The position numbers and the translations under genes are program-made. A stretch of DNA of 64,000 bases from Burkholderiales bacterium (GTDB taxonomy: Bacteria; Pseudomonadota; Gammaproteobacteria; Burkholderiales; Burkholderiaceae), in assembly GCA_021287185.1 (NCBI GenBank), contig JAJTAZ010000011.1, positions 124,001-188,000 on the forward strand, given 5' to 3'. Shown here piece after piece: positions 17,305 to 31,757 of the stretch. Each line of letters begins with the position of its first letter. Positions within the stretch are counted from its first letter, which is position 1. The notes under the pieces were generated by a model. It did no database searches. It worked only from the letters and a program-made list of their open reading frames with translations, and was not told where the DNA came from.

Positions 17305-17838
17305 TTAATTGACGACTCTAATCTGCACATCTCTCCCCACATTCTGAATCACAGGATACTGTGCGGTACTCACTGAACCTTCTTTGAGCTTGTCCGATAG
17401 CTCAATTACAGATATACGTCCGTCTTTGTCTTTATCGGTGGCTTTGTCTTTTAGGGTACTAAGGATTTTCGCAGTGAATGCACCGTTCTTGACATTTGGA
17501 TCTTGGGACTCGAATGCGCTGGTGCCTTTGGTTGTGGCCAAGAGCATGTGAATCCCTGCTGTTTTGGCTAAGACCGAGGCTTTGGCATCGTATACGCTCG
17601 ACACAATATCGTTCGCTTGACCTGATTCACAGGCATCGACGATAAATACTTGATTAAAAGCTCTTATGGACTGTATGGCCTTGAAGGTTTGTTCAAAGTC
17701 GATGAACTTCTCAAGATTGGTACTGTCTTGCGCGGCCAAAAGCAACTTACCTTCTCTAGCTCTACCGTGGGTCGAGACATAAAATACGATACTGTCCTCT
17801 GGGTTTGCTTGCTTAGCGATGTCACTCACCGCTTGCAT
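17305..17838 (-). pseudogene. Caspase-like (peptidase C14) protein lacking its N-terminus
   Basis: The 177 residues match the later part of a bacterial caspase-like peptidase: VFYVSTHG with the catalytic His at 24 and IVDACESG with the catalytic Cys at 70. An EF-hand-like loop, DKDKDGRISVIE (134-145), follows. The first strand and helix expected before the His motif (about 50-70 residues) are missing; the frame extends only ten codons upstream to a stop. It is therefore probably a 5'-truncated remnant at the island edge. A short functional protein cannot be fully ruled out since the catalytic pair is intact. Confidence 0.7.
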
Positions 17839-18047: not shown

Positions 18048-18824
18048 CTAAATAAGCACTCGATGCGCTAACCCATCCAACCGTATCTTCACACGTTCCC
18101 AATCGGGCATCACCTGCCCCAATAGCATATAAAATCTCTTGCTGTGGTTATGCTCTGCTAAGTGGCACAACTCATGCAAAATCACGTAGTCTATGCAGGC
18201 GTTTGGGGTTTTTACCAAATGAGGATTTAGGGTCAATCGACCTGTTGGCGAGCAACTGCCCCATTGGGTTTGCATGGTTAAAATTCTAAATGCTGGGCGC
18301 GACTCCACCCAAAGGGCTTTTTCTAATACAACATCTAAGCGTTTAGCAAATACTTCTTTGGCACGGGTTTTATACCATTCGTCTAACAACTGCTTTACTT
18401 TTTCGGGCGAATATTGACGTACCGAAACCTCAATTTTGCCACGCAATAATTTCACGTTTTGTGTGGCATCAGGCGCATGAATGACTTTAAGCATATATTG
18501 TTTGCCTAAATACAGGTGCGATTCGCCACTGACATATTCACGCGGTGTGGCGTATTGCGATTGCGCCCGAAAATCCCTTAATTTTTGGTAAATCCAACGT
18601 GACCGCTTATTTACAGCACGCATGAGCGACTGCTCATCGATTTGCTCAGGCACTGAGACTACGACCTTACCATTGGGGTGAACTTTAATCAAAATCCTTT
18701 GTTTGGATTGGGTCGTTACATTCGAGCGTATGACGCATTCAAACTCTATGCGTTCATCTCCATAAATAAAGTGTTTTTTTGAGTTTGTTGCCAACTTGCT
18801 TGGTGCAATGACTTCATCACACAT
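18048..18824 (-). CDS. YgjP-like metallopeptidase (DUF45/M48-like)
   Basis: A 258-residue protein with a zinc-protease motif HELCHLAEHNH at about 215-225, preceded by the PHLVKTPNACIDYVILHE stretch typical of the YgjP/WLM-like family. Genes of this kind often lie next to type I hsdR genes. It overlaps the hsdR stop by eight bases, so it belongs to the same operon. Role in restriction is unknown; proteolysis of HsdR or of phage proteins is speculation. Confidence 0.85.
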   Translation of the reverse strand: MCDEVIAPSKLATNSKKHFIYGDERIEFECVIRSNVTTQSKQRILIKVHPNGKVVVSVPEQIDEQSLMRAVNKRSRWIYQKLRDFRAQSQYATPREYVSGESHLYLGKQYMLKVIHAPDATQNVKLLRGKIEVSVRQYSPEKVKQLLDEWYKTRAKEVFAKRLDVVLEKALWVESRPAFRILTMQTQWGSCSPTGRLTLNPHLVKTPNACIDYVILHELCHLAEHNHSKRFYMLLGQVMPDWERVKIRLDGLAHRVLI

Positions 18825-21800
18825 GATTTAACCCCACCCGTGTGATTTGCACTATCGTTTCAACAATTCGTTTGGCTTGATCCATGCCACCACCATGGGC
18901 TTTGCACACATTAAACATCTTAGGCAATAGTTTTTTGCGTATTTCGGCTTCGATGTTTTGTGGGTTAATCGAGTGTTCCGCCACCGAAGTTTCAACCGCC
19001 AAATCCACCTCATGCGCCAAATTGACCCATGTGTTTTGTGTGTGCTCATCCATAGTCACAAACGCTTCGGGTAGGTTTTTCTTAAACACCCCAAAGTAAG
19101 CCTGTGCGTGATGATTGCCTGCAAAAACATCGGGAATATCGTTTAACCTACGCGCTTGTACCTGTGTTTCAAACTCATGGAACAGCATGTATTGTTTCAA
19201 TGGGTGTTCGAACAACTTCTCTGCTTCCTCGATGACTTGACGCAATAATTTTGAAAACGCCTCCTGTGCGTATGGATCGTCGCGTAAACCCTGCTCAATG
19301 GTTTTGGTTACACGTGTTTTGATGATGTCGGTTTCATTACGGGTTTTGTCCTCGTTCCATTCGGATGGTTCGGGTTTTTGCCCCATTTTGGATACTTCAT
19401 ACACGCCAGTAGGCTCTTTCACCCCAACGCCAACCACATGTTTGTCCAATAGTTTTTTCACCTGCTGGGCATACTCATCATAATCCACCCGCTCGCCAGC
19501 ATCCTGCTGGGCTAACTGGCGCAGACTGGAGAGTTGTTTAACCGTTTCTTTGTAGTGTTTGCGGTCATCGTCGCTAAAACTCTTGTCCTCAAAAAATGTT
19601 GCCGATTGCAACGCCACTTTTAGACAACTGGTAAACGCAGATAATGCCTCATAAAAATCCTCACGCACTTTCAAATGTACGTCCACCAATTCGCCATCTT
19701 TGTCCTGCATCCGTGGCACCAACACTTGACGCAGTTGTTCAATGTCTGATTTATTGTGCACCCCGTCAAATATCGCCCACAGTTCCTTGTATAACTGCGG
19801 AAGGCGTTTGTACTCAGTACTCATTTGTTGATACAAGCCATCAATATCCGCAACGTCATACCCGCCTTGGGTACGGGAAGCCAACTCTTGATATTTAATC
19901 AGAGTGGTATCTAATTCAGACAAAATTCCACGGTAATCTATCAATAAGCCAAATTTTTTCTGTGGGTGAAGACGATTGACCCGCGCAATGGCTTGTATCA
20001 AATTGTGTTCTTTGAGTGGTTTATCAATGTACAGCACCGCATTGCGTGGCTCATCAAAGCCCGTCAGCAGTTTATCCACCACGATGAGTAGTTTCAGCTT
20101 ATCGTCTTTTTCAAACCGTTTGATGATCTCACTGGTATAAACCTGCTCATCGGTACTGCCCACATTATCTTTCCACCACTTCGCAACAATCGGCATGGAC
20201 TCCTCATCCACGGAAGTATTGCCCTCACGGGTATCAGGCGCACTCATCACCACGGCAGACTCAAACAAACCAGCCTCATCCAAATACTGTTTGTACTTAA
20301 TCGCGGTCAGTTTACTGTCGCACGCCAATTGACCTTTTAGCCCATCGTCAATATTTTTCACAAAATGATTGGCAATATCCAAAGCAATCAAGCGAATGCG
20401 GTCATCCACTGCGTACAATTCACCTTTTTTGGCAAATTTGCGTTTTAAATCTGCTTTTTGCTCATCAGTCAGCCCCTCGGTGATTCTATCGAACCAGCTA
20501 TCAATCGCACGCTCATTCACATCCAAATCAGGAATCCGCTCCTCGTACAGCAATGGCGTGACCGTACCATCCTCGACCGCTCTTTGCATGGTATAGGCAT
20601 GAATCATCTTGCCAAATTTACCCTCGGTTTTATCATTTTTGAGTAAAGGCGTACCCGTAAATGCCACAAATGCCGCTTTGGGCAATGCCAGCGTCATACG
20701 CGTATGGTTTTCACCGCCTTGGCTACGGTGTCCTTCATCCACCAGCACGATTAAATCCGCGCTGTCGTTAAAACACTCGGGCAGTTTGGTGGCTGAATTA
20801 AACTTCTGTATCAATGAAAAAATAATCCGCTCTGTCCCTTTGCCTATCATCTGCGCTAACTTAGCCCCAGAATTGGCTAAGGACGCTTGTTTATCAGTCC
20901 GTCCAGTAAACTCACCCGTCGCTGCAAACGTATCGGACAATTGTTTCTCTAAATCCACCCTGTCCGTCACCACCAAGATACGACAGGCTTTCAGCGTGTC
21001 GTGCAAAATCAAGGTTTTGCTTAAAAAAACCATGGTCAATGATTTGCCTGAACCTGTGGTATGCCACACCACGCCGCCCTCGCGCCCGCCATCTGCGCGG
21101 CGGGTGTTGATGCGCTCAATCAGACGACGAATGCCAAACACCTGCTGATACCGTGCGACCAATTTACCAAACTTGCTATCAAATACAGTGAAATAACGCA
21201 CCATGTCCAAGAGGCGCGACGGCGTGAGCAAACTCATCAGCAATACATCTTGCCCCGTCACCGCCAAATCCCCGCCTGCAATCAGTGCCTGATACCAGCG
21301 CACATCATCGGCAGGACGATGCTCAAACAAACCCTGTATTTGCGCGTCCGTTAAACGCGTGTTTTTAATCGCGTGCATTTGTGCATCGCTTACATCCTCC
21401 TCACGCCAAGCCGCCCAAAACTTTGCAGGGGTTTCGCACGTGCCATAACGTCCCTCATGCCCATTGATGGACAGTAGTAACTGACTATAGACAAACAAAC
21501 GTGGAATCTCATCATGCCGCTGATTGCGCAGGCTTTGCGAAATTCCTTCGTCAATAGTCGGGCCTTTCTTAGCATTGCCGTCGGGTCGTTTAGCCTCAAC
21601 TACCACCAACGGAATCCCATTGACAAAGCACACCACATCAGGGCGGCGCGTGTCCAAACCACCCGAACGCAGTACGCTAAACTCCTCGGTAAAGGTAAAG
21701 TTATTGTGTGTGATGTTTTGCCAATCTATCAGCGCAATGGTCGGTGTGACTTTTTTGCCGTCAATAAACTCCGTGACCGAAATACCATAGAGCAATTGAT

Positions 21801-22134
21801 GGTACATACGCTCATTGGCAGTGAGCAAGCCCTCATTCAGTGCAGGGCTACACACCTGCGCAATCAGGTTATCCATCGCCCGCTCGGACAGTGGATAATC
21901 CTGCCCCGCAAAATGAAATCGCCTTTGCGCCAATGCCTCGCGCAATAAGGGGCGCAACACCACCTCATCGGTTTTACCCCCACGCATGGACAGCGCAGCA
22001 TCGGGCGACAAAAACCGCCAGCCTAATTGAGTGAGCAGGGTCAGCGCAGGGAGTTTTGCGCTGTATTCCTCTTGGAATTTGGGCATTGCTTGGTTCATAG
22101 CGTCGTCATCCAATCTTTCATTCAATCCAATCAA
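18817..22134 (-). CDS. hsdR: Type I restriction enzyme R subunit
   Basis: A 1105-residue motor and nuclease subunit. The N-terminal PD-(D/E)xK nuclease has RPDVVCFVNG and LVVVEAKRP (about 164-179). Then comes a superfamily 2 helicase with Walker A HTTGSGKS (about 357-364) and DEGH (about 464). The C-terminal part is helical and would bind the M2S methylase. Its start overlaps the fic stop by four bases (ATGA). It is separated from hsdM and hsdS by about 5 kb that holds a CBASS cassette, a coiled-coil gene and fic. Confidence 0.95.
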   Translation of the reverse strand: MIGLNERLDDDAMNQAMPKFQEEYSAKLPALTLLTQLGWRFLSPDAALSMRGGKTDEVVLRPLLREALAQRRFHFAGQDYPLSERAMDNLIAQVCSPALNEGLLTANERMYHQLLYGISVTEFIDGKKVTPTIALIDWQNITHNNFTFTEEFSVLRSGGLDTRRPDVVCFVNGIPLVVVEAKRPDGNAKKGPTIDEGISQSLRNQRHDEIPRLFVYSQLLLSINGHEGRYGTCETPAKFWAAWREEDVSDAQMHAIKNTRLTDAQIQGLFEHRPADDVRWYQALIAGGDLAVTGQDVLLMSLLTPSRLLDMVRYFTVFDSKFGKLVARYQQVFGIRRLIERINTRRADGGREGGVVWHTTGSGKSLTMVFLSKTLILHDTLKACRILVVTDRVDLEKQLSDTFAATGEFTGRTDKQASLANSGAKLAQMIGKGTERIIFSLIQKFNSATKLPECFNDSADLIVLVDEGHRSQGGENHTRMTLALPKAAFVAFTGTPLLKNDKTEGKFGKMIHAYTMQRAVEDGTVTPLLYEERIPDLDVNERAIDSWFDRITEGLTDEQKADLKRKFAKKGELYAVDDRIRLIALDIANHFVKNIDDGLKGQLACDSKLTAIKYKQYLDEAGLFESAVVMSAPDTREGNTSVDEESMPIVAKWWKDNVGSTDEQVYTSEIIKRFEKDDKLKLLIVVDKLLTGFDEPRNAVLYIDKPLKEHNLIQAIARVNRLHPQKKFGLLIDYRGILSELDTTLIKYQELASRTQGGYDVADIDGLYQQMSTEYKRLPQLYKELWAIFDGVHNKSDIEQLRQVLVPRMQDKDGELVDVHLKVREDFYEALSAFTSCLKVALQSATFFEDKSFSDDDRKHYKETVKQLSSLRQLAQQDAGERVDYDEYAQQVKKLLDKHVVGVGVKEPTGVYEVSKMGQKPEPSEWNEDKTRNETDIIKTRVTKTIEQGLRDDPYAQEAFSKLLRQVIEEAEKLFEHPLKQYMLFHEFETQVQARRLNDIPDVFAGNHHAQAYFGVFKKNLPEAFVTMDEHTQNTWVNLAHEVDLAVETSVAEHSINPQNIEAEIRKKLLPKMFNVCKAHGGGMDQAKRIVETIVQITRVGLNHV

Positions 22135-23141
22135 TCGTGGTCAATGTACCTGTCCAGCACACGCCAATGACCCTTTTTATCTGAGCCAACGCGCTCAATG
22201 TATGTGCCACGCAAGGCACGTATGCGTCGCTGTATGGTGGGCACAGAGCAATTCAAATCTTGTGCCAGTTGGCTTTGGTTAATGCGCGGCAGTTCACGCA
22301 TCATGCGCAGAATCTGCCGATCCAAATCATCCAGCGCATTTACCCCATCATTTACACCATCATTTACCCCATCGTGTTTGAGTAAATGCGCCTGCAAATT
22401 AGCATGAATCACATCGAGCATAAACTCAACAAACAACGTTGACTCACCCGCGCGATCGGCTTGACCGAGGGCCGCATAATACGCTGCCTGTCGTTCATGG
22501 ATCAGCGTCTCAATCGGCAACCACGCCAACTCAGAGCGCCACTGTGACAAAATCAAGGTTTGCCACAAACGCCCCATGCGACCATTGCCATCAGCAAAAG
22601 GGTGAATGAACTCAAACTCATAATGAAATACACAACTGCTAATCAGCGGAGGTAAATCAGTGAACGCCAACCAATGCAACAAATCCCGCATCAACTCAGG
22701 TACACGTGAGGCTGGTGGGGCAAGGTGCACGAGTTGCTGGTTTTGATAAATCCCCACACCACCCGAACGATACGCCCCACACTCATCGACCAACCCAGAC
22801 ATCAGGGCGCGGTGCGCCGCCAACACATCCGCCTCACGGTGCGCCACCCAAAGTGGCATTCCCTCATACGCGGCAAACGCATTGCGTACCTCGGCAATCT
22901 CCCGCACCGAGCCACGCACCGCCTTGCCCTCAAGCACCGCCGTCACCTGAGCTACACTCAAAGTATTTTGCTCAATCGCCAAAGACGCTTGAATGGTGCG
23001 AATGCGATTGCCACGGCGCAAGGTGGGCGTGAGCGTGGTGTTCGCCATGGCAGACCAACGACCCAGTAACTCGCTAATCTGCACCACCCGATTGAGCATG
23101 TGGGGCGTGATGGTGAGGGGTGGGGTGTAGTTGGTCATCAT
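22131..23141 (-). CDS. Fic family protein with winged-helix domain
   Basis: A 336-residue Fic protein, probably an AMP transferase or related. The active motif HPFADGNGRMGR is complete (around 180-195). An inhibitory-helix-like motif SLAIEQN at 53-59 lies N-terminal to it, as in class II Fic proteins, with Q in place of the usual G. The C-terminus has a helix-turn-helix (INQSQLAQDLNCSVPTIQRRI). Between the two is a DGVN triple repeat encoded by three 12-base units. Fic genes of this layout are often found in type I restriction loci. Confidence 0.9.
   Translation of the reverse strand: MMTNYTPPLTITPHMLNRVVQISELLGRWSAMANTTLTPTLRRGNRIRTIQASLAIEQNTLSVAQVTAVLEGKAVRGSVREIAEVRNAFAAYEGMPLWVAHREADVLAAHRALMSGLVDECGAYRSGGVGIYQNQQLVHLAPPASRVPELMRDLLHWLAFTDLPPLISSCVFHYEFEFIHPFADGNGRMGRLWQTLILSQWRSELAWLPIETLIHERQAAYYAALGQADRAGESTLFVEFMLDVIHANLQAHLLKHDGVNDGVNDGVNALDDLDRQILRMMRELPRINQSQLAQDLNCSVPTIQRRIRALRGTYIERVGSDKKGHWRVLDRYIDHD
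22337..22372. repeat. Three 12-base tandem repeats inside fic
   Basis: Three units of CATTTACMCCAT (M is A or C) in tandem encode DGVN three times on the minus strand. The unit is in frame, so copy-number change would alter a linker length without frameshift. Confidence 0.85.
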
Positions 23142-23395
23142 TGCCCTTTATGTTTATTGTGATAATGGGGCAATAAAAAGCCACCAAGGTTACGCATTGT
23201 AAAGAGGCGTGGTGGCTGTGTTACCGTCATTATCGTTGATTGCTGCACATGAGTCAATACGTCACCGCTGTATGCACAAACATCGTTAAGCACGGCTTCT
23301 GAATTCAGAAGCGTGCCGTTTATTTTAGATCCTTGGGGAGGTACGAAAATTTTCGCACCGTATCCTTCTTGGAGTTTCTGAGTTTCTAAAATCAT
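23138..23395 (-). CDS. Possible 85-aa protein in the fic leader (doubtful)
   Basis: This frame ends with an ATGA overlap with fic, which favours it being translated. Against it, the segment contains a strong promoter (23229-23257) and a terminator-like hairpin (23180-23216), and the encoded sequence has no domain I recognise. It may be a regulatory leader rather than a gene, or a remnant of a phage gene. Confidence 0.3.
   Translation of the reverse strand: MILETQKLQEGYGAKIFVPPQGSKINGTLLNSEAVLNDVCAYSGDVLTHVQQSTIMTVTQPPRLFTMRNLGGFLLPHYHNKHKGQ
23180..23216 (-). terminator. Terminator-like hairpin in the fic leader
   Basis: On the minus strand GCCACCA pairs with TGGTGGC across a 23-base loop and is followed by TTTTTATT. 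It lies between a promoter and the fic start, so it could end transcription from the CBASS side or act as an attenuator. Confidence 0.45.
23229..23257 (-). promoter_or_regulatory. Promoter for fic-hsdR
   Basis: On the minus strand TTGACT (23252-23257) and GATAAT (23229-23234) are 17 bases apart, near the sigma-70 consensus. Start of transcription would be about 80 bases before the fic ATG. This lets fic-hsdR-peptidase be expressed apart from the CBASS genes. Confidence 0.6.
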
Positions 23396-23441: not shown

Positions 23442-24032
23442 TCAGGGACAAATTCGAAACACAATGTTTGAACACCACAGACCAAAAACGCACATTGCAA
23501 CGATCACGAATGTGGTTAATGACAGCGGAATCTTATCGCGAAAAAATTTAAAATTTAGCTGTTCATCAATCCAGTCGATTTGATGCTCCCAAAAAAATTT
23601 ATAATGTGCGCACCAATTGCTAAATAAAATTTGGTGAGAATTACTGATTTTTGTATACCTTTGTTCGATGAGCGACAATTGTTCTAAATGCTCATTTGTT
23701 GGGTTAGTTGATGATTTTACTTTCCGATACAAAGTTTTCAGTTCATTAAATAAATCAATGAGTAAATTCCCATTTTGGACGTAACTGTCCTTTTTTGAGT
23801 CATATAACGAAATATAAATCCCAACAATCCCCAAGATAACGAGAGTTGCAGAGATGAATTTAGTATTTAGACTCTCAAATATTAGCGCATATATACCAAC
23901 AACCATAGAAAAGAAACCAATTAGACCAGGTACTTTCGAAACAATATCAAAAGTGGCAAAATGTTTTTTCGCACCAAATCCAATGTTATATGCAGTTTCT
24001 GCGATTTGCTTTAAACAATCTTCTTTATTCAT
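23442..24032 (-). CDS. SLATT-domain membrane effector of CBASS
   Basis: A 196-residue membrane protein. Two hydrophobic helices (about 35-52 and 59-77) near the N-terminus, then a helical cytoplasmic region with a conserved-looking LSLIEQRYTKISNSHQILF stretch, and a third hydrophobic segment at about 171-193. This fits the SLATT class (SMODS- and SLOG-associated 2TM effectors), which are thought to form pores when a cyclic nucleotide is made. It starts 12 bases after the CD-NTase stop. The call depends strongly on this neighbour; the sequence itself is diverse. Confidence 0.8.
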   Translation of the reverse strand: MNKEDCLKQIAETAYNIGFGAKKHFATFDIVSKVPGLIGFFSMVVGIYALIFESLNTKFISATLVILGIVGIYISLYDSKKDSYVQNGNLLIDLFNELKTLYRKVKSSTNPTNEHLEQLSLIEQRYTKISNSHQILFSNWCAHYKFFWEHQIDWIDEQLNFKFFRDKIPLSLTTFVIVAMCVFGLWCSNIVFRICP

Positions 24033-24044
24033 GACTCTTCCTTC

Positions 24045-25343
24045 CTATTTGATTGGTACGTCAATTGAAGCGCGTGCGACAACCACTCCTCCTCGAATGG
24101 CATAGCATTCCACAATATGCTCACCAATAAAGTCCGTGGATTCATGTTTTTCATTACTTCCTCGGTCGCTTTCAATTTGACCTCGTATGCAATCACGACG
24201 TTCAGCTTCCAACCCCCTGTTTAATACCTTCCATTTAAGTTGGTATGGTTGTGGAATGTCAGTTTTAGTTACAAAGAACCTTAGTTTTTTGTGCGCCCTA
24301 AGTGGCAATTTGTTCAATAACATATAAGCAAGCGTATGCTCTCGAAAACCATTTTGAGTAACATCACAATCCATTTCAATATTGAATTTCACATCAATAG
24401 GGAATCTATCCTCTATAAATTCCTCCGTATTTATCCATGAGTTAGATTCCAATGCGGCTGATTTTTGCAGTGCATCACCCATCGGAAAACTTCGACCAAA
24501 GACTTTTTTCCATTTTTTCCCGACATCTGAATCTTGTTCGGAATTTATTGCCTTTAAGCATAAGTCATAAGTATCGTTAGCCTTTTTCTGAAATTTCTTT
24601 TTAACCTTGACATTTTGATTACTTCCAGGAGCTCTATAAAAATCTCGGTCAGTTTGTTCTGCTAAAAACTTAAAAAAGTCTCTACACATCCAGTCAAAAT
24701 AATAGAAACTTTTGTCGTCATATTCAGTTGTTGAATTTAGAAAATTATATGCAAGGGTATCAATTAACAAACCACCCATTTCAATACCATGTTGATTTTT
24801 CCATGCACGCGCCATTTTGCATAGTGATCTTAAATTTTTATTTTTTTGAACATTCAACTCTCTTATTGCTTGCATTTCCTGACGAGGCTTTGTAATTTTC
24901 CAACTTCCACCATTGTAAGTATCAGGATATTTAAATTGAGTGTTGCCCTCTGCATCAAATTCCTCAAATACTGGTTGTACTTCAATGTGAAAATTAGTAT
25001 AAGTTACGGTAACAACCAATCTATCAACTCGGACATCCGTTTTAGGGTATCTTGCTTTTATTGCATCCCTCACCCCATTTAATAATTGTGTTTGTTTCCC
25101 ATCTTTATAATTAATCCATTCACTTTCTGGCATTATGTAAAGCATATCCAAGTCCGAGATTCCCTTAATACCTGTATATCTTCCATATGAGCCGACTTGC
25201 AATGTGTTCGCTGTGGTTGATTCTGAATCTCTAAATTTTTGATTTAGAACCTTTGTAATTTCTCCGTAACGTGAGCTGATCTGATCTGCGCTATCAACTT
25301 TTAGGTTGCCTAAAAATTCTTCGAACATTGTAGCTATAGACAT
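24045..25343 (-). CDS. CBASS CD-NTase (SMODS nucleotidyltransferase with AGS-C sensor)
   Basis: A 432-residue nucleotidyltransferase. The motif GSYGRYTGIKGISDLDMLY (51-69) carries the GS and the two metal-binding Asp residues (64 and 66), and Glu121 in FHIEVQPVFE is the likely third ligand. The C-terminal 130 residues (from about 300) match the AGS-C sensor domain, ending with HIVECYAIRGGVVVARASIDV. Such enzymes make a cyclic nucleotide signal after phage infection. The start at 25343 (MSIATMF) has GAGG upstream and lies seven bases after the DUF2188 gene. Clearly more AT-rich than hsdR and fic. Confidence 0.9.
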   Translation of the reverse strand: MSIATMFEEFLGNLKVDSADQISSRYGEITKVLNQKFRDSESTTANTLQVGSYGRYTGIKGISDLDMLYIMPESEWINYKDGKQTQLLNGVRDAIKARYPKTDVRVDRLVVTVTYTNFHIEVQPVFEEFDAEGNTQFKYPDTYNGGSWKITKPRQEMQAIRELNVQKNKNLRSLCKMARAWKNQHGIEMGGLLIDTLAYNFLNSTTEYDDKSFYYFDWMCRDFFKFLAEQTDRDFYRAPGSNQNVKVKKKFQKKANDTYDLCLKAINSEQDSDVGKKWKKVFGRSFPMGDALQKSAALESNSWINTEEFIEDRFPIDVKFNIEMDCDVTQNGFREHTLAYMLLNKLPLRAHKKLRFFVTKTDIPQPYQLKWKVLNRGLEAERRDCIRGQIESDRGSNEKHESTDFIGEHIVECYAIRGGVVVARASIDVPIK

Positions 25344-25350
25344 TTTTACC

Positions 25351-25584
25351 TCACTTTTTATCAGTTGGAGGATGTGGATCGTTACCATAATTATTACCTG
25401 CACGGATTTTGCCATCACGTCCGTGGATTTTGGTATCCGATTGTTGATTACGGGCGATTTGCTGCGCTCTTTGCGTGGCTTCGGCTTGGGTATCTGTCAC
25501 CTTAGTGGCTTTTGAATTCCCTGCACCTTTAACCGCCCATCCATCAGGATGAGGAACAACGTGTTGATTTTTACCTTGACTCAT
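25351..25584 (-). CDS. DUF2188-like small protein
   Basis: A 77-residue basic protein. HVVPHPDGWAVKGAG followed by ATQRAQQIARNQQSD and IHGRDGKIR is the layout of DUF2188: a small beta sheet and a helix, of unknown function. The start at 25584 (MSQGKNQ) has AAAGGA upstream; a longer frame would add 36 unlikely residues. It directly precedes the CD-NTase gene, so it may be part of the CBASS operon, although DUF2188 genes occur in many other settings. Confidence 0.75.
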   Translation of the reverse strand: MSQGKNQHVVPHPDGWAVKGAGNSKATKVTDTQAEATQRAQQIARNQQSDTKIHGRDGKIRAGNNYGNDPHPPTDKK

Positions 25585-25735: not shown

Positions 25736-27211
25736 TCACCCCTTAATTTTCTCAACAAGTTTTGTAATTGGTTCAACGATTCCAGACAGTTTTTTATCAA
25801 AATCATCCAACGGGTGACCTGTATCCTTGACTTTATCTAAAACTTCAGCAGGGTTTTTGGCAATGGTTTGTATAGATCCTTCAAGCAATTTTTCAAGCAA
25901 TTCTTTACTGGTCTGGTCATCTTTGTATAACTCAAGCACCTGTGATTTATAACCCTCGAAACTTCTTGAAACAACCTCTTTATGCTCATATTCGTGCTCT
26001 AACCTAAAATACTGGTTCGCTTTTTTAGCATAAGAATACGCAATCCAAATAACTGGCGAGATAAAGGAAGCACGATAAAGCATTGCTACGTACCACACAT
26101 CCGACTTTGGCCATAAACCAAAACTTTGCATCATGTAGGTGATTGCAAGTATCGCAACCAACGCAACAATCATCCGCTGGAAACGTTTTTCGCTATCTAT
26201 TTTGAGTTGTTGCACAGCATCTCTTGACTTTCCAAAAGCATGCGCCAAACTTGCGTTTGTTGCAGCTTTTAACAAACCTTCAATTTCTTGCTTTTTGGCA
26301 TCCTTGTATTTATCAAAGGCTAAAATATAACCATCTATTTTTTTCTTTTCATCTGCGATATACACTTCAAATTGTTTATGCAGTTCATCGACCAGTTCTT
26401 TTTTAGATTTGGTTTTTGTGATGACCTCCTCACCTTCCTTGTCTTTTGATACAGTGGTTGAACCAGTAATATATTCAGCTATAAAGGAACTGATTTTATT
26501 TTGGTTAGCTTCCAAATCTTCAACCAACTCATCAATCTGAGCTTTTACAGAATCGGTTTCATCATCTCCGTCAATTAACTCTGTTTTCAACTCAAGAATT
26601 TCATCTCGTAACGTACTTGCTTCGGTGTTTTTGTTTTTAATTTGCTCCAGATAACCGTCATCACCGAAGATTTCTTCATGAACTCCTTTAATATGTTCGA
26701 ACTGAGATTTGTAAGACTCTGTATCCTCATCGTCTTCAAAACACAGATTATAAAAAGTCTCAATTTCATTACTATAGCCATCAATTTCAGTTTTGATGCT
26801 CCTAACCTCTCCTGCAGTCTTTGTAATCTCATCAAAGGATTTAGCTGCTAATTTCCGATTGGCTAATGAATCGTTAATAATCTTGCCAACTCTATGGTTA
26901 AAGTAACCATAGCTGTGCAGTAACTTATCCAATTCAAAAGCATGTATAACGCATTGCGCATAATAACTTGAGTTGGTGTATGAATTTATGTGCTGAATGA
27001 GACCAGTTAATTGAGTTTGTATGCTGTTTGTTAAAGCAGATTCCTCTTTCGAAGTGAACTCCGTTTTCAGCACAGAGATACACCGAGTCAACATCTGTTT
27101 CAATGCCATCAAATTAGTGGACATATGGGTCAACGATGGTGCGGTCTCTGCTGTCCATGTTTGGAGTATCGGCTCAATTTGCGCAACTTGTGCATGGATG
27201 GTGTTAGGCAT
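25736..27211 (-). CDS. Coiled-coil membrane protein of unknown function
   Basis: A 491-residue protein I do not recognise as a named family. Residues 1-150 are helical, about 150-345 are a charged coiled coil, two hydrophobic helices lie at about 358-376 and 393-411, and about 80 helical residues follow (EYEHKEVVSRSFEGYKSQVLEL). The start overlaps the hsdS stop by eight bases, so it is translated with the methylase genes. A 150-base gap separates it from the CBASS cassette. Similar membrane-plus-coiled-coil proteins occur in defence regions, where they may act as abortive-infection effectors; that is inference. Confidence 0.7.
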   Translation of the reverse strand: MPNTIHAQVAQIEPILQTWTAETAPSLTHMSTNLMALKQMLTRCISVLKTEFTSKEESALTNSIQTQLTGLIQHINSYTNSSYYAQCVIHAFELDKLLHSYGYFNHRVGKIINDSLANRKLAAKSFDEITKTAGEVRSIKTEIDGYSNEIETFYNLCFEDDEDTESYKSQFEHIKGVHEEIFGDDGYLEQIKNKNTEASTLRDEILELKTELIDGDDETDSVKAQIDELVEDLEANQNKISSFIAEYITGSTTVSKDKEGEEVITKTKSKKELVDELHKQFEVYIADEKKKIDGYILAFDKYKDAKKQEIEGLLKAATNASLAHAFGKSRDAVQQLKIDSEKRFQRMIVALVAILAITYMMQSFGLWPKSDVWYVAMLYRASFISPVIWIAYSYAKKANQYFRLEHEYEHKEVVSRSFEGYKSQVLELYKDDQTSKELLEKLLEGSIQTIAKNPAEVLDKVKDTGHPLDDFDKKLSGIVEPITKLVEKIKG

Positions 27212-28451
27212 AACAATTCTCCAGTTTAACCCGCCGCTTGCCAGTCAATAACTGCTGCATCAAGGCTTTTTTCTCTTGTTTGAGGGCTTCGAGTTTGGTT
27301 TGTAATAAATCGACTTCATTCTCGGCAATCTTTAGTACACCGCCGATTTTTTTTTGCTCAGCAATATCTGGGTAACTAATCAAAATACTTCTGAAACTAT
27401 CTTGTGATACAACATACCTCTGCCCACTTCCATCGGCTAAGCGATTGACCTGCTTTCTAAATTGAGGTGTAGTGAAAGCATAGGCTTTGAAATTTAGATC
27501 CCAAGGTTCATTAATTCTATATCTAACCACATGATAGCTATAACAGCATTCAGAAATATCTTCAGCCGCCACAGCGGGGATTCCGGCCTCCTCTCGTGTT
27601 TCAGAAGATGGTGTAAAAAAAACATCTCCCTTTCGGATATCGCAATCTCTGATTTTTGACGGTGGAGCTGTAACCCAGTGATTTAAGTCCTGAGAATGAA
27701 TAAAGCTATTGTTAAATACATCGGTGAAATTTAGTAATCGAACAGGCACTTCGCCCTCGACTACTTTTTTGTCCACACCCGCACTTTTCACTAACCCAAT
27801 TTTCCCAATAGTTGAATGATTCCACCGTTCACCAAACCTCACCCCATCCTCATCCAACAATCGTTTTTTGCCTGTGAGCAGTTGTTGCATCAGGGCTTTT
27901 TTTTGATGTTGGCTGTTGGCGAGTAGTTGCTCGGTGGTGGTGATGGCTTTGTCCCACGTGGATAGGATTTGAGCGATTTTTTGTTGTTCGGGGAGTGGGG
28001 GCGCAGGAACTTGTATTGACTTCACAATTGAGCCGCTTAAGTTCTCTTGACTGCCACTGTTACTTAGGTTACGAATGTTATCGTATTGAGAACGCAGATA
28101 TTGATAATAATAATCCACGCAAAAATTATGTTTGAACACAATGGCGGCACAGGCTTGATTCGTCGTGGCTTCAATTCCTAATTTAGCCACTTTGCCACGA
28201 GTTTTCCCCTGCCCATACATTGCTAGTAACACCGTTCCAATAGGAAATAATTTTGCTGAAGAATTATTCAGGCCATCCTGTGTAATTTTCTCGGTAGTGT
28301 CAAATATTTCGCAAAAGTCAATTTCTGCTGTTGTTACCCACGGAATTGCGCCGTTCCAGTACTCTGGCTTCCCCCTACTTGGTGTTCCACCCGAACTAAC
28401 GTTCGCGATGTCCTCAAGTGTTTTTTTACTCCACCCCTCAGGCACTTTCAT
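27204..28451 (-). CDS. hsdS: Type I restriction enzyme S subunit
   Basis: A 415-residue specificity subunit with two target-recognition domains. Each is followed by a conserved helix: PLPEQQKIAQILSTWDKAI with LLANSQHQKKALMQQLLTGKKR, and IAEQKKIGGVLKIAENEVDLLQTKLEALKQEKKALMQQLLTGKRR, read in parts. The first starts with GWSKKTLEDIANVSSGGTPSRGKPEYWNG. Its start overlaps the dinD stop (ATGA). Confidence 0.95.
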   Translation of the reverse strand: MKVPEGWSKKTLEDIANVSSGGTPSRGKPEYWNGAIPWVTTAEIDFCEIFDTTEKITQDGLNNSSAKLFPIGTVLLAMYGQGKTRGKVAKLGIEATTNQACAAIVFKHNFCVDYYYQYLRSQYDNIRNLSNSGSQENLSGSIVKSIQVPAPPLPEQQKIAQILSTWDKAITTTEQLLANSQHQKKALMQQLLTGKKRLLDEDGVRFGERWNHSTIGKIGLVKSAGVDKKVVEGEVPVRLLNFTDVFNNSFIHSQDLNHWVTAPPSKIRDCDIRKGDVFFTPSSETREEAGIPAVAAEDISECCYSYHVVRYRINEPWDLNFKAYAFTTPQFRKQVNRLADGSGQRYVVSQDSFRSILISYPDIAEQKKIGGVLKIAENEVDLLQTKLEALKQEKKALMQQLLTGKRRVKLENCYA

Positions 28452-29335
28452 TCGTTTTCCCCTTGTGGTTTTTCTCCATTCATTTCGCCGCTCCCCAAGA
28501 CGTCTGGGTTTTGTACGGCTTTTTTCTCGGTTGTTGTCAATCTCCGCTCTACTTTTTTTACATCTTCCGCTGGGGGTAGGTTTTCTGGGGTAATGCCACG
28601 GTTGAGCAGTGTTTGACGAACCGCTTCGTTATTGGTGACATGTTCGCCTGAAATTTGCCCTTCGGTGTGCATGTTTTGCGCACGCGCGTTGTGGATGGTG
28701 ATTTCGGTGGCGAAGTCTTTGGCTTTGAGGATGATGGTGGGGGCAAAGTCTGCCAAGGGACGATTATCAGGAATTTGCCATTGGGCTTTCATCGCGTGGG
28801 TGCTTTTGCCAAAGAGTGCGCGGTCGCCTTTGCTGCGAATCAGTGCGAAATTTTGATTGCCGCCTGTTTGCTCATAGATGACGCTGGAGAGTTCTTTTTC
28901 GGTATCGGAGAGTTTTTTGCGTGCCTGCAATCGCTCGGTTTCTAAGAGCCGTTGTTCAATCAGTTCGGCTTTGCGGGTTTGCATGGCAAAGTAGGTTTGT
29001 GCAAAGGCGATTTCTTGCTTGCGAGGGTCGCCGTTTTGTGCAATCAAATAACAGGCGTAGCGGGTGAGCATGATGTCGTTAATGTCTCGCTGGCTTCCTG
29101 AGCCTAATTCGACCATTTTCCCGACGTCGGCAAAATGGTCGTCTATGTTATGGCCAGAGAGTTCACATGCGGTTTTGGCTTTGGAGATCACGCCCTGAAA
29201 GTTATCCCATTTACCATAACCCAATAGATGCTGCAAATCACGCGCCAGCCAAAACTCAATGCCGTTTTCGGTCTGTTGTGCATGGTCTTCAAAACTCGTG
29301 GTCAGTGTTTGGATGAATTGCTGTTCCATCGTCAT
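28448..29335 (-). CDS. dinD: DNA damage-inducible protein D
   Basis: A 295-residue DinD-family protein. The N-terminal BRO-like part has FWLARDLQHLLGYGKWDNF, followed by AKTACELSGHNIDDHFADVG and DIMLTRYACYLIAQNGDPRK, typical of DinD. In E. coli, DinD is SOS-induced and inhibits RecA strand exchange. Here it is embedded between hsdM and hsdS with overlapping ends at both sides, a pairing seen in other type I loci. Its role there is not known. Confidence 0.92.
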   Translation of the reverse strand: MTMEQQFIQTLTTSFEDHAQQTENGIEFWLARDLQHLLGYGKWDNFQGVISKAKTACELSGHNIDDHFADVGKMVELGSGSQRDINDIMLTRYACYLIAQNGDPRKQEIAFAQTYFAMQTRKAELIEQRLLETERLQARKKLSDTEKELSSVIYEQTGGNQNFALIRSKGDRALFGKSTHAMKAQWQIPDNRPLADFAPTIILKAKDFATEITIHNARAQNMHTEGQISGEHVTNNEAVRQTLLNRGITPENLPPAEDVKKVERRLTTTEKKAVQNPDVLGSGEMNGEKPQGENE

Positions 29336-29455: not shown

Positions 29456-30988
29456 TTATTCATAGCCCAACTCCGCAAGGTATTGACTCATTTGTGTTTC
29501 GATGTCGTTTAATTGCGCTTGCAGTTTGAGCCGCTCGACGCGTACTGCCATGAGGTCTATCTCGGCTTCTTCTTCAAAGGTATCCACGTAACGTGGTATG
29601 TTTAGGTTGTAGTCGTTCTCTTTAATCTCATCCAAAGTCGCAAGGTAGGCGTATTTGTCGACGTTGGTGCGTGCGCGGTAGGTGGTGATGATTTTTTCGA
29701 TGTTAGTTGCTGAGAGTATGTTTTGATTTTTACCCGATTCGTAGTCACGGCTGGCATCAATGAACAGTACGTTTGGGTCGGTTTTGGTCTTTTTGAATAT
29801 CAGTATGGCAGCAGGGATGCCTGTGCCGTAAAAGAGTTTTTCGGGTAGTCCGATGACGGTATCGAGTAGGTTTTCGTCTATGAGTTTTTGACGAATGACA
29901 CCCTCGGATGAACCCCGAAACAGTACGCCGTGTGGCACAACCACCCCCATGCGCCCTGATTTGGGTTTCATGGTTTCGATCATGTGGCTGATAAAGGCGT
30001 AGTCGCCTTTGGTTTTGGGCGGGATGCCTCGGCGGAATCGACTGAATTTGTCATTTTCCGCGCCATCATGCCCCCATTGGTCTAACGAAAACGGTGGATT
30101 AGCCGTCACGATGTCAAAGAGCATGAGGTCGCCATTTTTGTCCAATAGTTTGGGGTTGCGGATGGTGTCGCCCCATTCGATTTTGTGGTTGTCTTCGCCA
30201 TGCAAGAACATATTCATTTTGGCAAGTGACCATGTGGAGCCGATGGCTTCTTGACCATATAAGGCGTAGTTTTTACTGCCGTGGTTGGCAAGGATTTTGC
30301 GCCCGCATTTCATCAATAATGAGCCTGAACCACAGGCAGGGTCGCAAATGGTGTCGTTGGGCTGTGGGTCAAGCAGTTCGGCAATCAAGTCTGAGACTTC
30401 GGGCGGTGTGTAGAACTCACCTGCTTTTTGTCCACCACTGGCGGCAAACTTTTTAATCAGGTATTCGTAGGCATTGCCAATTACATCCAATGAACCCACA
30501 CGGGTGGGCTTGAGGTCCAGTTCTGGTTTGTCAAATACTTCGATAAGCGCACGTAGGATGTCGTTTTTTTGTTTTTCCTCACCTAGTTTGTCGGTGTTAA
30601 AACTGATGTCTTGGAACACGCTTTTGCCTGCGTCTTTGAGCTTGGTGCCGTTGGCTTCCTCTATGGCATGCAGGGCTTTGTCTATGCGTTCGCCATTGCC
30701 TGGCTCGTAACGCGAATCAAAAAGTTTGTAAAAACTGGACTGTGGCGGCAATACGAAACGTTCGTTTTTCATCATTTCATGGATGAGTTCTGGCTCATCG
30801 CCGTACTGCGCTTTGTAATTGTCGTAGTGGTCTTGCCATACATCGGAGATGTATTTGAGAAAGAGCATGGTCAGGATGAAATCTTTATACGTGTCCGCGC
30901 TGATGGTGCCACGAAAGACATCGCAGGCGTTCCATAATGCGTTGTTGATGTCGTCTTGCTTAATTGGAGTGACTTGGGTGTGTGTCAT
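29456..30988 (-). CDS. hsdM: Type I restriction-modification methylase (M) subunit
   Basis: A 510-residue N6-adenine methyltransferase. The SAM-binding motif DPACGSGSLL lies at about 215-224 and the catalytic NPPF motif in TANPPFSL at about 294-301. An N-terminal helical domain (HsdM_N) starts with NNALWNACDVFRGTISADTY. It follows the half-S gene after seven bases. Confidence 0.97.
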   Translation of the reverse strand: MTHTQVTPIKQDDINNALWNACDVFRGTISADTYKDFILTMLFLKYISDVWQDHYDNYKAQYGDEPELIHEMMKNERFVLPPQSSFYKLFDSRYEPGNGERIDKALHAIEEANGTKLKDAGKSVFQDISFNTDKLGEEKQKNDILRALIEVFDKPELDLKPTRVGSLDVIGNAYEYLIKKFAASGGQKAGEFYTPPEVSDLIAELLDPQPNDTICDPACGSGSLLMKCGRKILANHGSKNYALYGQEAIGSTWSLAKMNMFLHGEDNHKIEWGDTIRNPKLLDKNGDLMLFDIVTANPPFSLDQWGHDGAENDKFSRFRRGIPPKTKGDYAFISHMIETMKPKSGRMGVVVPHGVLFRGSSEGVIRQKLIDENLLDTVIGLPEKLFYGTGIPAAILIFKKTKTDPNVLFIDASRDYESGKNQNILSATNIEKIITTYRARTNVDKYAYLATLDEIKENDYNLNIPRYVDTFEEEAEIDLMAVRVERLKLQAQLNDIETQMSQYLAELGYE

Positions 30989-30995
30989 GGTGTGC

Positions 30996-31583
30996 TCAGT
31001 TATTTGGGTTGGATTGAATGAGTTGATTGACCAATGCGGTTTGCATTTGGGCTGTATTGGTACGCATTTGCTCTAATAAACGGTATTCTTCGCGGAACAG
31101 TCGGGCGAGTGATACGATGTGTTGTTGTTGCGCCATGGGTGGAATGATGACGGGTGTGTTCTCTAATGCGGTGCGTTTGAGGCTTTTTGAGATCGCACCT
31201 TCGGCTGATTTTTCAAAATATCTTTGCGTGGGCACTTGATTGAGCCACCATGTTAAGTATTCGGGTAATATTTGTGCGTTTATTTTACTCAGCACAAAAA
31301 AAGCGGGCGCAGCAACTGCCTGAAAACCTTGTGGAATGTCTTGTATATGTGCCGCAAAGAAATTAAAGCCTCGTGCAACCACAATCACATCGCCATCGCA
31401 TAACCACTGCGGCATTTTTTTACCTGGCAGTTGAGTTGGAACGCAAGTCTTCCAATTCACGCCATTGGTTTTAGATACATCCTTCATTTGAATCAAGAGT
31501 TCTTTCGACTCGGGCGACTGAATCACTTGTGACCTGAGTTGAAAGCCAAGCTCAATGGAGGCGATTTGATTTAGAATTTGCAT
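30996..31583 (-). CDS. Half-sized type I specificity (HsdS-like) subunit
   Basis: A protein of about 195 residues with a single target-recognition domain: ELGFQLRSQVI near the N-terminus and PPMAQQQHIVSLARLFREEY with a terminal helix rich in leucine. Full HsdS proteins have two such units. Half-size S proteins can work as dimers. It lies upstream of hsdM by seven bases, while a full hsdS lies downstream. Start is uncertain: ATG at 31583 fits the domain, an ATG at 31634 is possible. Confidence 0.75.
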   Translation of the reverse strand: MQILNQIASIELGFQLRSQVIQSPESKELLIQMKDVSKTNGVNWKTCVPTQLPGKKMPQWLCDGDVIVVARGFNFFAAHIQDIPQGFQAVAAPAFFVLSKINAQILPEYLTWWLNQVPTQRYFEKSAEGAISKSLKRTALENTPVIIPPMAQQQHIVSLARLFREEYRLLEQMRTNTAQMQTALVNQLIQSNPNN

Positions 31584-31757
31584 TGCAGTAATTGGTTTTT
31601 TGTATAAACGGCTAAATTTTACACAATTCCGCATCTCAAGTCAATTAAAATTTATGCAGTAATATTTTTACTACAATTAAGTGGGTGCGCTACTGTTAAT
31701 AAGAAAATGAGTTAAATCACCATTAATAAAGCGTTACGCGTTAATGGTGTCAAACTA

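What the first reader, a model, noticed from the sequence alone, without database searches (positions are those of the whole stretch)
23442..25584. CBASS cassette nested inside a type I restriction locus
CD-NTase with AGS-C sensor and a SLATT pore-like effector sit between hsdS and fic-hsdR, on the same strand, with AT-rich DNA compared to its neighbours. Two defence systems in one co-directed block could share transcription or be a layered defence, where the abortive CBASS acts if restriction fails.
Basis: partly seen in the sequence, partly recalled or inferred. Interest (0 to 1): 0.75.

Follow-up and report, generated by a model that had tools for sequence, protein, structure and literature searches.

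The report
CBASS cargo inside type I restriction operons
A complete-looking bacterial abortive-infection alarm system sits inside an operon for a DNA-cutting defence, and the same insertion, at the same spot, turns up in unrelated bacteria, so it looks like a recurrent passenger of a known defence-gene slot and not a one-off.

Summary
Between hsdS and hsdR of an intact-looking type I restriction-modification (RM) operon lie DUF2188, a SMODS+AGS-C CD-NTase with intact motifs, and a SLATT_6 effector, co-directed. The same interval also holds an unknown 491-aa protein and Fic. The arrangement recurs: of 25 loci examined with this CD-NTase type, 7 are hsdS-CBASS-hsdR (the window; Aeromonas, Arcobacter and Methylomonas plasmids; Salinimonas, Marinomonas, an Alteromonadaceae). 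A 147-aa in-frame scar marks a former one. Trees reject a single embedded clade (p-AU 0.018) and scatter CBASS over the HsdR tree. From the RM side the interval is a general cargo slot: of 28 relatives opened, 20 carry other genes (Shedu, KwaB, Abi_2, GmrSD, Fic and others), 6 are empty, 1 has CBASS, 1 the scar. Since 18 of 25 CD-NTase loci lie elsewhere, obligate PrrC-like coupling is unlikely. Best reading: a modular CBASS repeatedly inserted into a known cargo slot and expressed with the operon; layered defence is plausible but untested. The window is the loosest case (gaps of up to 151 and 300 bp). Embedding in RM is known (PrrC, DarTG2, TgvAB); my searches of open papers showed no report of CBASS there.

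The parts
30996..31634 (-). half-length HsdS-like gene (212 aa), first gene of the operon
   Evidence: NCBIfam PRK09737 E 4.8e-6, far below its cut-off; no Pfam match at E 0.001; half-length homologues at 23-39% identity near or ahead of hsdM in 13 loci
29456..30988 (-). hsdM, 510 aa, NPPF motif intact
   Evidence: Pfam N6_Mtase E 5e-106 and HsdM_N E 2e-23; NPPF at residue 297
28448..29335 (-). DinD-like gene in the hsdM|hsdS interval (PDC-S13)
   Evidence: NCBIfam PRK11525 E 6.8e-115; PADLOC PDC-S13 1.2e-119
27204..28451 (-). hsdS, 415 aa, two Methylase_S stretches
   Evidence: Pfam Methylase_S E 1.3e-37, 2 stretches; PADLOC Specificity_I 7.4e-108
25736..27211 (-). unknown 491-aa coiled-coil protein with one hydrophobic segment over threshold, first cargo gene, overlaps hsdS by 8 bp
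   Evidence: no Pfam match reaching its cut-off, no PADLOC match; weak, mostly C-terminal relatives on Vibrio, Campylobacter and Acinetobacter plasmids; segment 348-366
25351..25584 (-). DUF2188 protein, 77 aa (PDC-S16)
   Evidence: Pfam E 1.3e-22 (on the longer ORF); 86% identical in Salinimonas L007, in the same place before the CD-NTase
24045..25343 (-). CD-NTase, 432 aa, SMODS + AGS-C; GSYG 51-54, DLD 64-66, E121
23442..24032 (-). SLATT_6 2TM effector, 196 aa; hydrophobic segments near 34-52, 59-77 and 174-192
23138..23395 (-). 85-aa ORF in the SLATT-fic gap, overlapping fic by 4 bp; coding status unknown
   Evidence: no Pfam match
23295..23312 (.). perfect 18-bp palindrome in the SLATT-fic gap, single place in the genome; role unknown
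23229..23257 (-). promoter-like TTGACT-17-GATAAT (10 of 12) ahead of fic; weak evidence
   Evidence: 29 sites found in the region against 32.6 expected in shuffles
22131..23141 (-). Fic-family gene with C-terminal winged HTH, last cargo gene before hsdR
   Evidence: Pfam Fic 3.6e-20; PADLOC SoFic 1.3e-44; HPFADGNGR visible in the translation
18817..22134 (-). hsdR, 1105 aa from TTG 22134 (or from ATG 22098)
   Evidence: TIGR00348 E 1.6e-140; VEAK, GSGKS and DEGH motifs
18048..18824 (-). YgjP/SprT-like metallopeptidase gene, constant downstream partner
   Evidence: Pfam YgjP-like 8e-61; a homologue or annotated SprT-family gene follows hsdR in 27 of the 28 slot relatives, not seen in L051

Best explanation
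This is a complete two-gene CBASS (CD-NTase with SMODS and AGS-C, plus a SLATT membrane effector) that has been inserted as a module into the hsdS|hsdR cargo slot of a type I RM operon. Shown: the parts, their intact motifs, the slot, embedding in several RM lineages that does not trace to one clade, and loss by deletion in one. Inferred from family knowledge: on infection the cyclase makes a cyclic oligonucleotide, SLATT opens or damages the membrane, and the cell stops or dies, while the RM enzyme cuts unmodified incoming DNA earlier. Inferred too: the slot gives the module expression with the operon and joint transfer, and the CBASS works without this RM, as relatives lying elsewhere suggest. 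The two would act in sequence only in the sense that one is early and the other late.
For: HMM identities and intact motifs. Recurrence: 7 of 25 CD-NTase loci embedded. CD-NTase tree: embedded rows need 5 changes, at least 3 forced by well-supported branches; one clade rejected at p-AU 0.018. HsdR tree: 7 changes, at least 5 forced. Slot census: 20 of 28 with other cargo, 6 empty. Close RM relatives (HsdR 87-93% identical) show filled (L004), scarred (L054) and empty (L071) states. Tight ORF spacing in the 6 other loci. Effector swap at the same site: SLATT_4 in L004, SLATT_6 in the other six. Precedent: with V. cholerae TgvAB the whole cluster protected better than tgvAB alone, but HsdR nuclease was not needed (PMC11411939, passages).
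Against: No expression or phage data. In the window two gaps (up to 151 and 300 bp, the second with a promoter-like site, but such sites are at chance frequency) could separate transcription units. From the RM side CBASS is rare: 1 of 28 slots plus 1 scar. Neither tree shows the label more clustered than shuffles (88 and 211 of 500 as low), which fits repeated gain but also means little tree signal. AlphaFold models were too poor to use (pLDDT 47 and 52).
Confidence: 0.72

Rival explanations
1. RM guardian: the embedded CBASS watches the RM enzyme and fires when a phage blocks restriction, as PrrC does for EcoprrI.
For: Embedded in a type I RM locus, as PrrC is in ecoprrI, where T4 Stp activates it (PMC12707154 and PMC2610378, passages); tight ORF coupling in relatives; embedding not from one clade.
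Against: PrrC orthologues are described as invariably linked to type Ic RM (PMC2610378), whereas 18 of 25 CD-NTase loci are not in this position (action in trans on an RM elsewhere in the genome was not tested); the host RMs include HsdRs only 29-38% identical, a poor fit to a conserved contact; RM genes stay full length after CBASS is broken (L054).
Confidence: 0.12
2. Neutral clustering: CBASS falls into a defence-island hotspot with no benefit from the RM operon; each module has its own promoter.
For: The slot accepts many unrelated genes; the window has a gap of up to 300 bp with a promoter-like site; HsdR-tree label not clustered (211 of 500 shuffles as low).
Against: ORF overlaps of 1-28 bp or gaps of at most 22 bp at all joints but one (64 bp in L005) in the 6 other loci, with starts partly chosen mechanically, and an in-frame scar that keeps the 8-bp overlap with hsdR, point to readthrough expression.
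Confidence: 0.14
3. Decayed passenger: the cassette in this window is no longer functional.
For: Nothing direct; a decayed case exists elsewhere (L054).
Against: Full-length ORFs, GSYG/DLD/E motifs and AGS-C present, and 59-61% identity to five aligned relatives.
Confidence: 0.02

Closest known systems
CBASS with CD-NTase (SMODS+AGS-C) and SLATT/2TM effector (PADLOC Cyclase and Effector 2TM models)
   Same: both genes and domains; PADLOC scores 2e-193 and 5.7e-83
   Different: 18 of the 25 loci examined lie outside hsdS|hsdR; here the pair lies between hsdS and hsdR
RRDM island: DarTG2 between hsdS and hsdR with an M48 peptidase gene (EPEC; PMC12255303, passages and two sections read)
   Same: same slot, with a metallopeptidase gene in the island; that paper calls the site a potential recombination hotspot
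   Different: cargo is a toxin-antitoxin pair; an RptR repressor comes first; RptR was not sought here
TgvAB inside the type I RM operon of V. cholerae VPI-2 (PMC11411939, passages read)
   Same: defence pair embedded in a type I RM operon
   Different: cargo is a GmrSD-type type IV restriction system
PrrC in EcoprrI (PMC2610378, PMC12707154, passages read)
   Same: suicidal effector embedded in a type I RM locus
   Different: PrrC is an anticodon nuclease silenced by the RM enzyme and described as always linked to it; most CD-NTase loci examined here are not
PADLOC PDC-S candidates; guilt-by-embedding (Payne et al. 2024 preprint; not held, seen only as cited by other papers)
   Same: DUF2188 (S16) and DinD (S13) are best matches to PDC-S models, Fic a secondary one (S04, 1.9e-15); several relatives' cargo also match PDC-S models
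   Different: these are single-gene candidates; I could not check whether that preprint lists CBASS in RM loci

Membership tests
CBASS | CD-NTase with SMODS domain and catalytic GS / DxD motifs | tested here: met
   PF18144 1.2e-44; GSYG 51, DLD 64, E121; that these are the catalytic motifs is from recall
CBASS | adjacent effector gene | tested here: met
   SLATT_6 gene 12 bp downstream; response to a nucleotide not tested
CBASS | synthesis of a cyclic oligonucleotide on infection and abortive defence | not testable with these tools
   needs biochemistry and phage assays
Type I restriction-modification | HsdM, HsdS and HsdR together, with motifs | tested here: met
   HsdS and HsdR; HsdM; motifs; activity not tested
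hsdS|hsdR cargo slot (RRDM/TgvAB-like embedding) | defence genes lie between hsdS and hsdR and differ among relatives | tested here: met
   of 28 relatives opened, 20 carry other cargo, 6 none, 1 CBASS, 1 scar; hsdS itself out of view in L041 and L042
PrrC-like RM guardian | effector always linked to a type I RM system | tested here: not met
   18 of 25 loci not embedded
PrrC-like RM guardian | silenced by the RM enzyme, released by anti-restriction factors | not testable with these tools
   needs genetics
PrrC-like RM guardian | anticodon nuclease with ABC ATPase | tested here: not met
   no such domain in CD-NTase or SLATT

The most novel reading that the evidence does not exclude
Embedded CBASS is an RM guardian: the AGS-C CD-NTase is held inactive by, or reads the products of, the type I RM complex, so that a phage that blocks or evades restriction triggers SLATT-mediated cell death. 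This would be a cyclic-nucleotide counterpart of PrrC that arose several times by insertion into one slot.
Probability: 0.12. Interest if true: 0.82.

Novelty: new variant of a known kind. Interest (0 to 1): 0.46.

Why it matters
It shows that CBASS, a suicidal alarm related to animal cGAS signalling, repeatedly enters the expression unit of a first-line DNA-cutting defence at one fixed position, in several RM lineages and with two different SLATT effectors. That makes a question directly testable: does placing an abortive system inside a restriction operon only tie their expression and inheritance, or make one sense the failure of the other? The filled, scarred and empty versions of one RM system give ready comparisons.

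Tried and rejected
AlphaFold2 of the 491-aa protein (one sequence, pLDDT 47) and of the CD-NTase (six sequences, pLDDT 51.6) were too poor; no fold search was run on them. PDB sequence search: CD-NTase 4 weak hits (best E 1.4e-7, 6p8u/6p82), SLATT none up to E 1. Promoter and terminator scans were near chance (29 against 32.6 and 20 against 16.8). The palindrome in the SLATT-fic gap matches only itself in the genome at up to 3 mismatches, so not a repeat family. DUF2188 as a fixed CBASS partner was rejected: it matches 474 plasmid records, the one I opened for it (L089) has no CBASS in view, and in most of the 25 CD-NTase loci none was seen close by in tblastn or annotation; but it does precede a cyclase-SLATT pair in three loci: the window, L007 (8 bp) and, about 490 bp away, the second pair of L066. 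Low GC as a mark of the module was set aside: the direction is the same in all 7 embedded loci but hsdS shares it. Phage records hold only partial relatives (3 records, none covering 80% or more). One paper opened for 'embedded within' (PMC12813430, passages) uses the words in another sense.

Full report
What is there. On the minus strand, in transcription order, the window holds a half-length hsdS-like gene (31634-30996), hsdM (30988-29456), a DinD-like gene (29335-28448), hsdS (28451-27204), an unknown 491-aa protein (27211-25736), DUF2188 (25584-25351), a CD-NTase (25343-24045), SLATT (24032-23442), fic (23141-22131), hsdR (22134-18817) and a YgjP/SprT-type peptidase (18824-18048). The two CBASS genes are strong HMM matches: SMODS 1.2e-44, AGS_C 1.9e-46 and SLATT_6 3.5e-72 in Pfam, and PADLOC cyclase 2e-193 and 2TM effector 5.7e-83. 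GSYG 51-54, DLD 64-66 and E121 of the CD-NTase are invariant in the window and five aligned relatives (the scar ORF of the Aeromonas-type lineage has GSFG); that these are the catalytic residues is from recall. HsdM has NPPF; HsdR has VEAK, GSGKS and DEGH. No other CBASS accessory gene (ubiquitin-like conjugation or HORMA/TRIP13) appears among the ten proteins of this region scanned with Pfam.

Recurrence, drawn by the CD-NTase alone. AGS_C was checked by HMM in 16 of the 25 and found in all 16. Seven are hsdS-CBASS-hsdR: the window, Aeromonas veronii plasmid (L004), Arcobacter plasmid (L005), Salinimonas profundi (L007), Marinomonas polaris (L008), an Alteromonadaceae bacterium (L009) and a Methylomonas plasmid (L059). 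Eighteen are not; several of these are close kin of one another (L006/L060, L010/L011, L063/L064, L065/L070/L088), so the 18 are fewer independent cases. For unannotated contigs 'not embedded' means no tblastn hit to three reference Hsd sets, so distant Hsd families could be missed. G176's contig is only 4.6 kb and has a C5 DNA methylase upstream. The other 14 contig loci (best segments 28-44% identical, at most 300 residues matched) had no Hsd hit. Hit rates in the genome samples were low: 1 of 61, 10 of 369 (mostly weak or partial) and 3 of 398 genomes, each including the window's own, and none new in 42 genomes of one order.

Scar and empty site. Plasmid pKAZ1 (L071, HsdR 93% identical) has no cargo; its hsdM and the end of hsdS are fused. 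In all three, the gene before hsdR ends inside the first codons of hsdR with the same 8-bp overlap.

Independent gains. In a tree of 23 CD-NTases the 7 embedded ones need 5 changes of state, at least 3 forced by well-supported branches; 88 of 500 shuffled labelings need as few. One clade is rejected, p-AU 0.018. L088 and the cut L012 were not in the tree; L066-L069 have long branches. In a tree of 35 HsdRs the CBASS label (7 plus the scar) needs 7 changes, at least 5 forced, and is no more clustered than shuffled labels (211 of 500 as low). This set mixes loci drawn by CD-NTase and by HsdR, so the counts show scatter and not a rate. HsdR pairs are 38% (window-Arcobacter), 29% (window-Aeromonas) and 32% (Arcobacter-Aeromonas) identical. 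The effector also differs: SLATT_4 in Aeromonas, SLATT_6 in the other six.

The slot seen from the RM side. HsdR similarity gave 15 of 369 class genomes including the window, 2 of 32 and 2 of 41 in two orders, and 29 and 439 plasmid records, of which I looked at 4 and 9 chosen for diversity. Two genome loci, L052 and L053, were cut by contig ends and dropped. Of 28 relatives whose stretch upstream of hsdR is readable, 20 hold other genes, 6 are empty (L046, L047, L048, L071, L072 with only a 62-aa same-strand ORF, L078), 1 holds CBASS (L004) and 1 the scar (L054). In L041 and L042 the contig ends before hsdS, so there only the genes next to hsdR are seen. Other cargo: Shedu with HAD, KwaB, Abi_2, GmrSD, Fic, RhuM, KAP ATPase, AAA_21/OLD-like ATPases, GIY-YIG/DUF4357, NucS-type PDC-S02, YecA, DUF3800, DUF559, DUF4917, DUF6161 (some from annotation). 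L046, L049, L076 and L077 have rearranged or split neighbours, so their slots are less clean. A second, smaller slot lies between hsdM and hsdS (DinD in the window; RhuM, PDC-S02 or Fic in relatives).

Coupling. In the six other embedded loci the joints from hsdS through CBASS to hsdR overlap or lie within 22 bp, but for one 64-bp gap in L005; starts in L007-L009 and L059 are first-codon or match starts, so overlaps are approximate. In the window hsdS overlaps the 491-aa gene by 8 bp; DUF2188, CD-NTase and SLATT are 7 and 12 bp apart; but gaps of 151 and 300 bp stand before DUF2188 and after SLATT. With the longest DUF2188 ORF the first gap would be 43 bp. The second holds an 85-aa ORF without family match that overlaps fic by 4 bp, a palindrome, and a promoter-like site at chance frequency. 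So one transcript is likely in the relatives and open in the window. If hsdR starts at ATG 22098 and not TTG 22134, its overlap with fic becomes a gap of 32 bp.

Mechanism. Best reading: modular CBASS cargo expressed with the RM operon. The steps from infection to cyclic nucleotide to SLATT membrane damage are inferred from family knowledge; [quoted passage not shown] The strongest argument against a PrrC-like guardian is that PrrC orthologues are said to be invariably RM-linked (PMC2610378, passages), while most loci of this CD-NTase are not in such a position. The guardian reading stays open because embedding recurs, action in trans was not tested, and I know of no phage experiment on these loci.

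Literature. [quoted passage not shown] PMC11411939 (passages) describes TgvAB and cites RloF between hsdR and hsdS in Campylobacter. PMC10569733 (passages) notes three genes between hsdS3 and hsdR3 in A. veronii C4. PMC12707154 (passages) treats PrrC and PARIS as RM guardians. Searches for CBASS inside type I RM loci listed none that I recognised as reporting it; but only openly licensed papers are searched, I did not open most of the listed papers, and the embedding preprint cited there is not held. The statement that the arrangement is unreported is therefore weak.

Noticed in passing
window 30996-31634; L007 6389-6979, L008 5567-6163, L009 6578-7189, L040 9238-9861, L043 7135-7707, L059 759-1391: A half-length HsdS-like gene (about 190-212 aa) is kept before hsdM in many relatives at only 23-39% identity (13 loci by tblastn); its role is unclear.
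   Followed up: partly
window 17305-17838: Caspase-like ORF (Peptidase_C14 E 3.5e-10; EACC1-associated type below cut-off) just after the RM operon; it matches only from position 53 of the profile, so it may be truncated.
   Followed up: no
window 25736-27211: 491-aa coiled-coil protein of unknown family as first cargo gene; mostly its C-terminal part has weak relatives on plasmids and in two of 398 phylum genomes besides its own.
   Followed up: partly
L054 9879-10322: In-frame deletion fuses CD-NTase N-terminus to SLATT C-terminus and keeps the overlap with hsdR; possibly selection to keep hsdR translation, possibly chance.
   Followed up: partly
L084 5863-9586: Two genes with GmrSD N-terminal domains side by side in the hsdS|hsdR slot, reminiscent of V. 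cholerae TgvAB.
   Followed up: no
L066 888-7283: Rhodococcus plasmid with two cyclase/SLATT pairs in opposite gene order and a DUF2188 gene between them; the second cyclase matches SMODS only weakly (1.9e-10) and DncV-like.
   Followed up: partly
   Followed up: no
window 25351-25584 and L007 9759-9992: DUF2188 is 86% identical between the two loci while the adjacent CD-NTase is 60% and HsdR 57%: strong constraint or separate exchange.
   Followed up: partly
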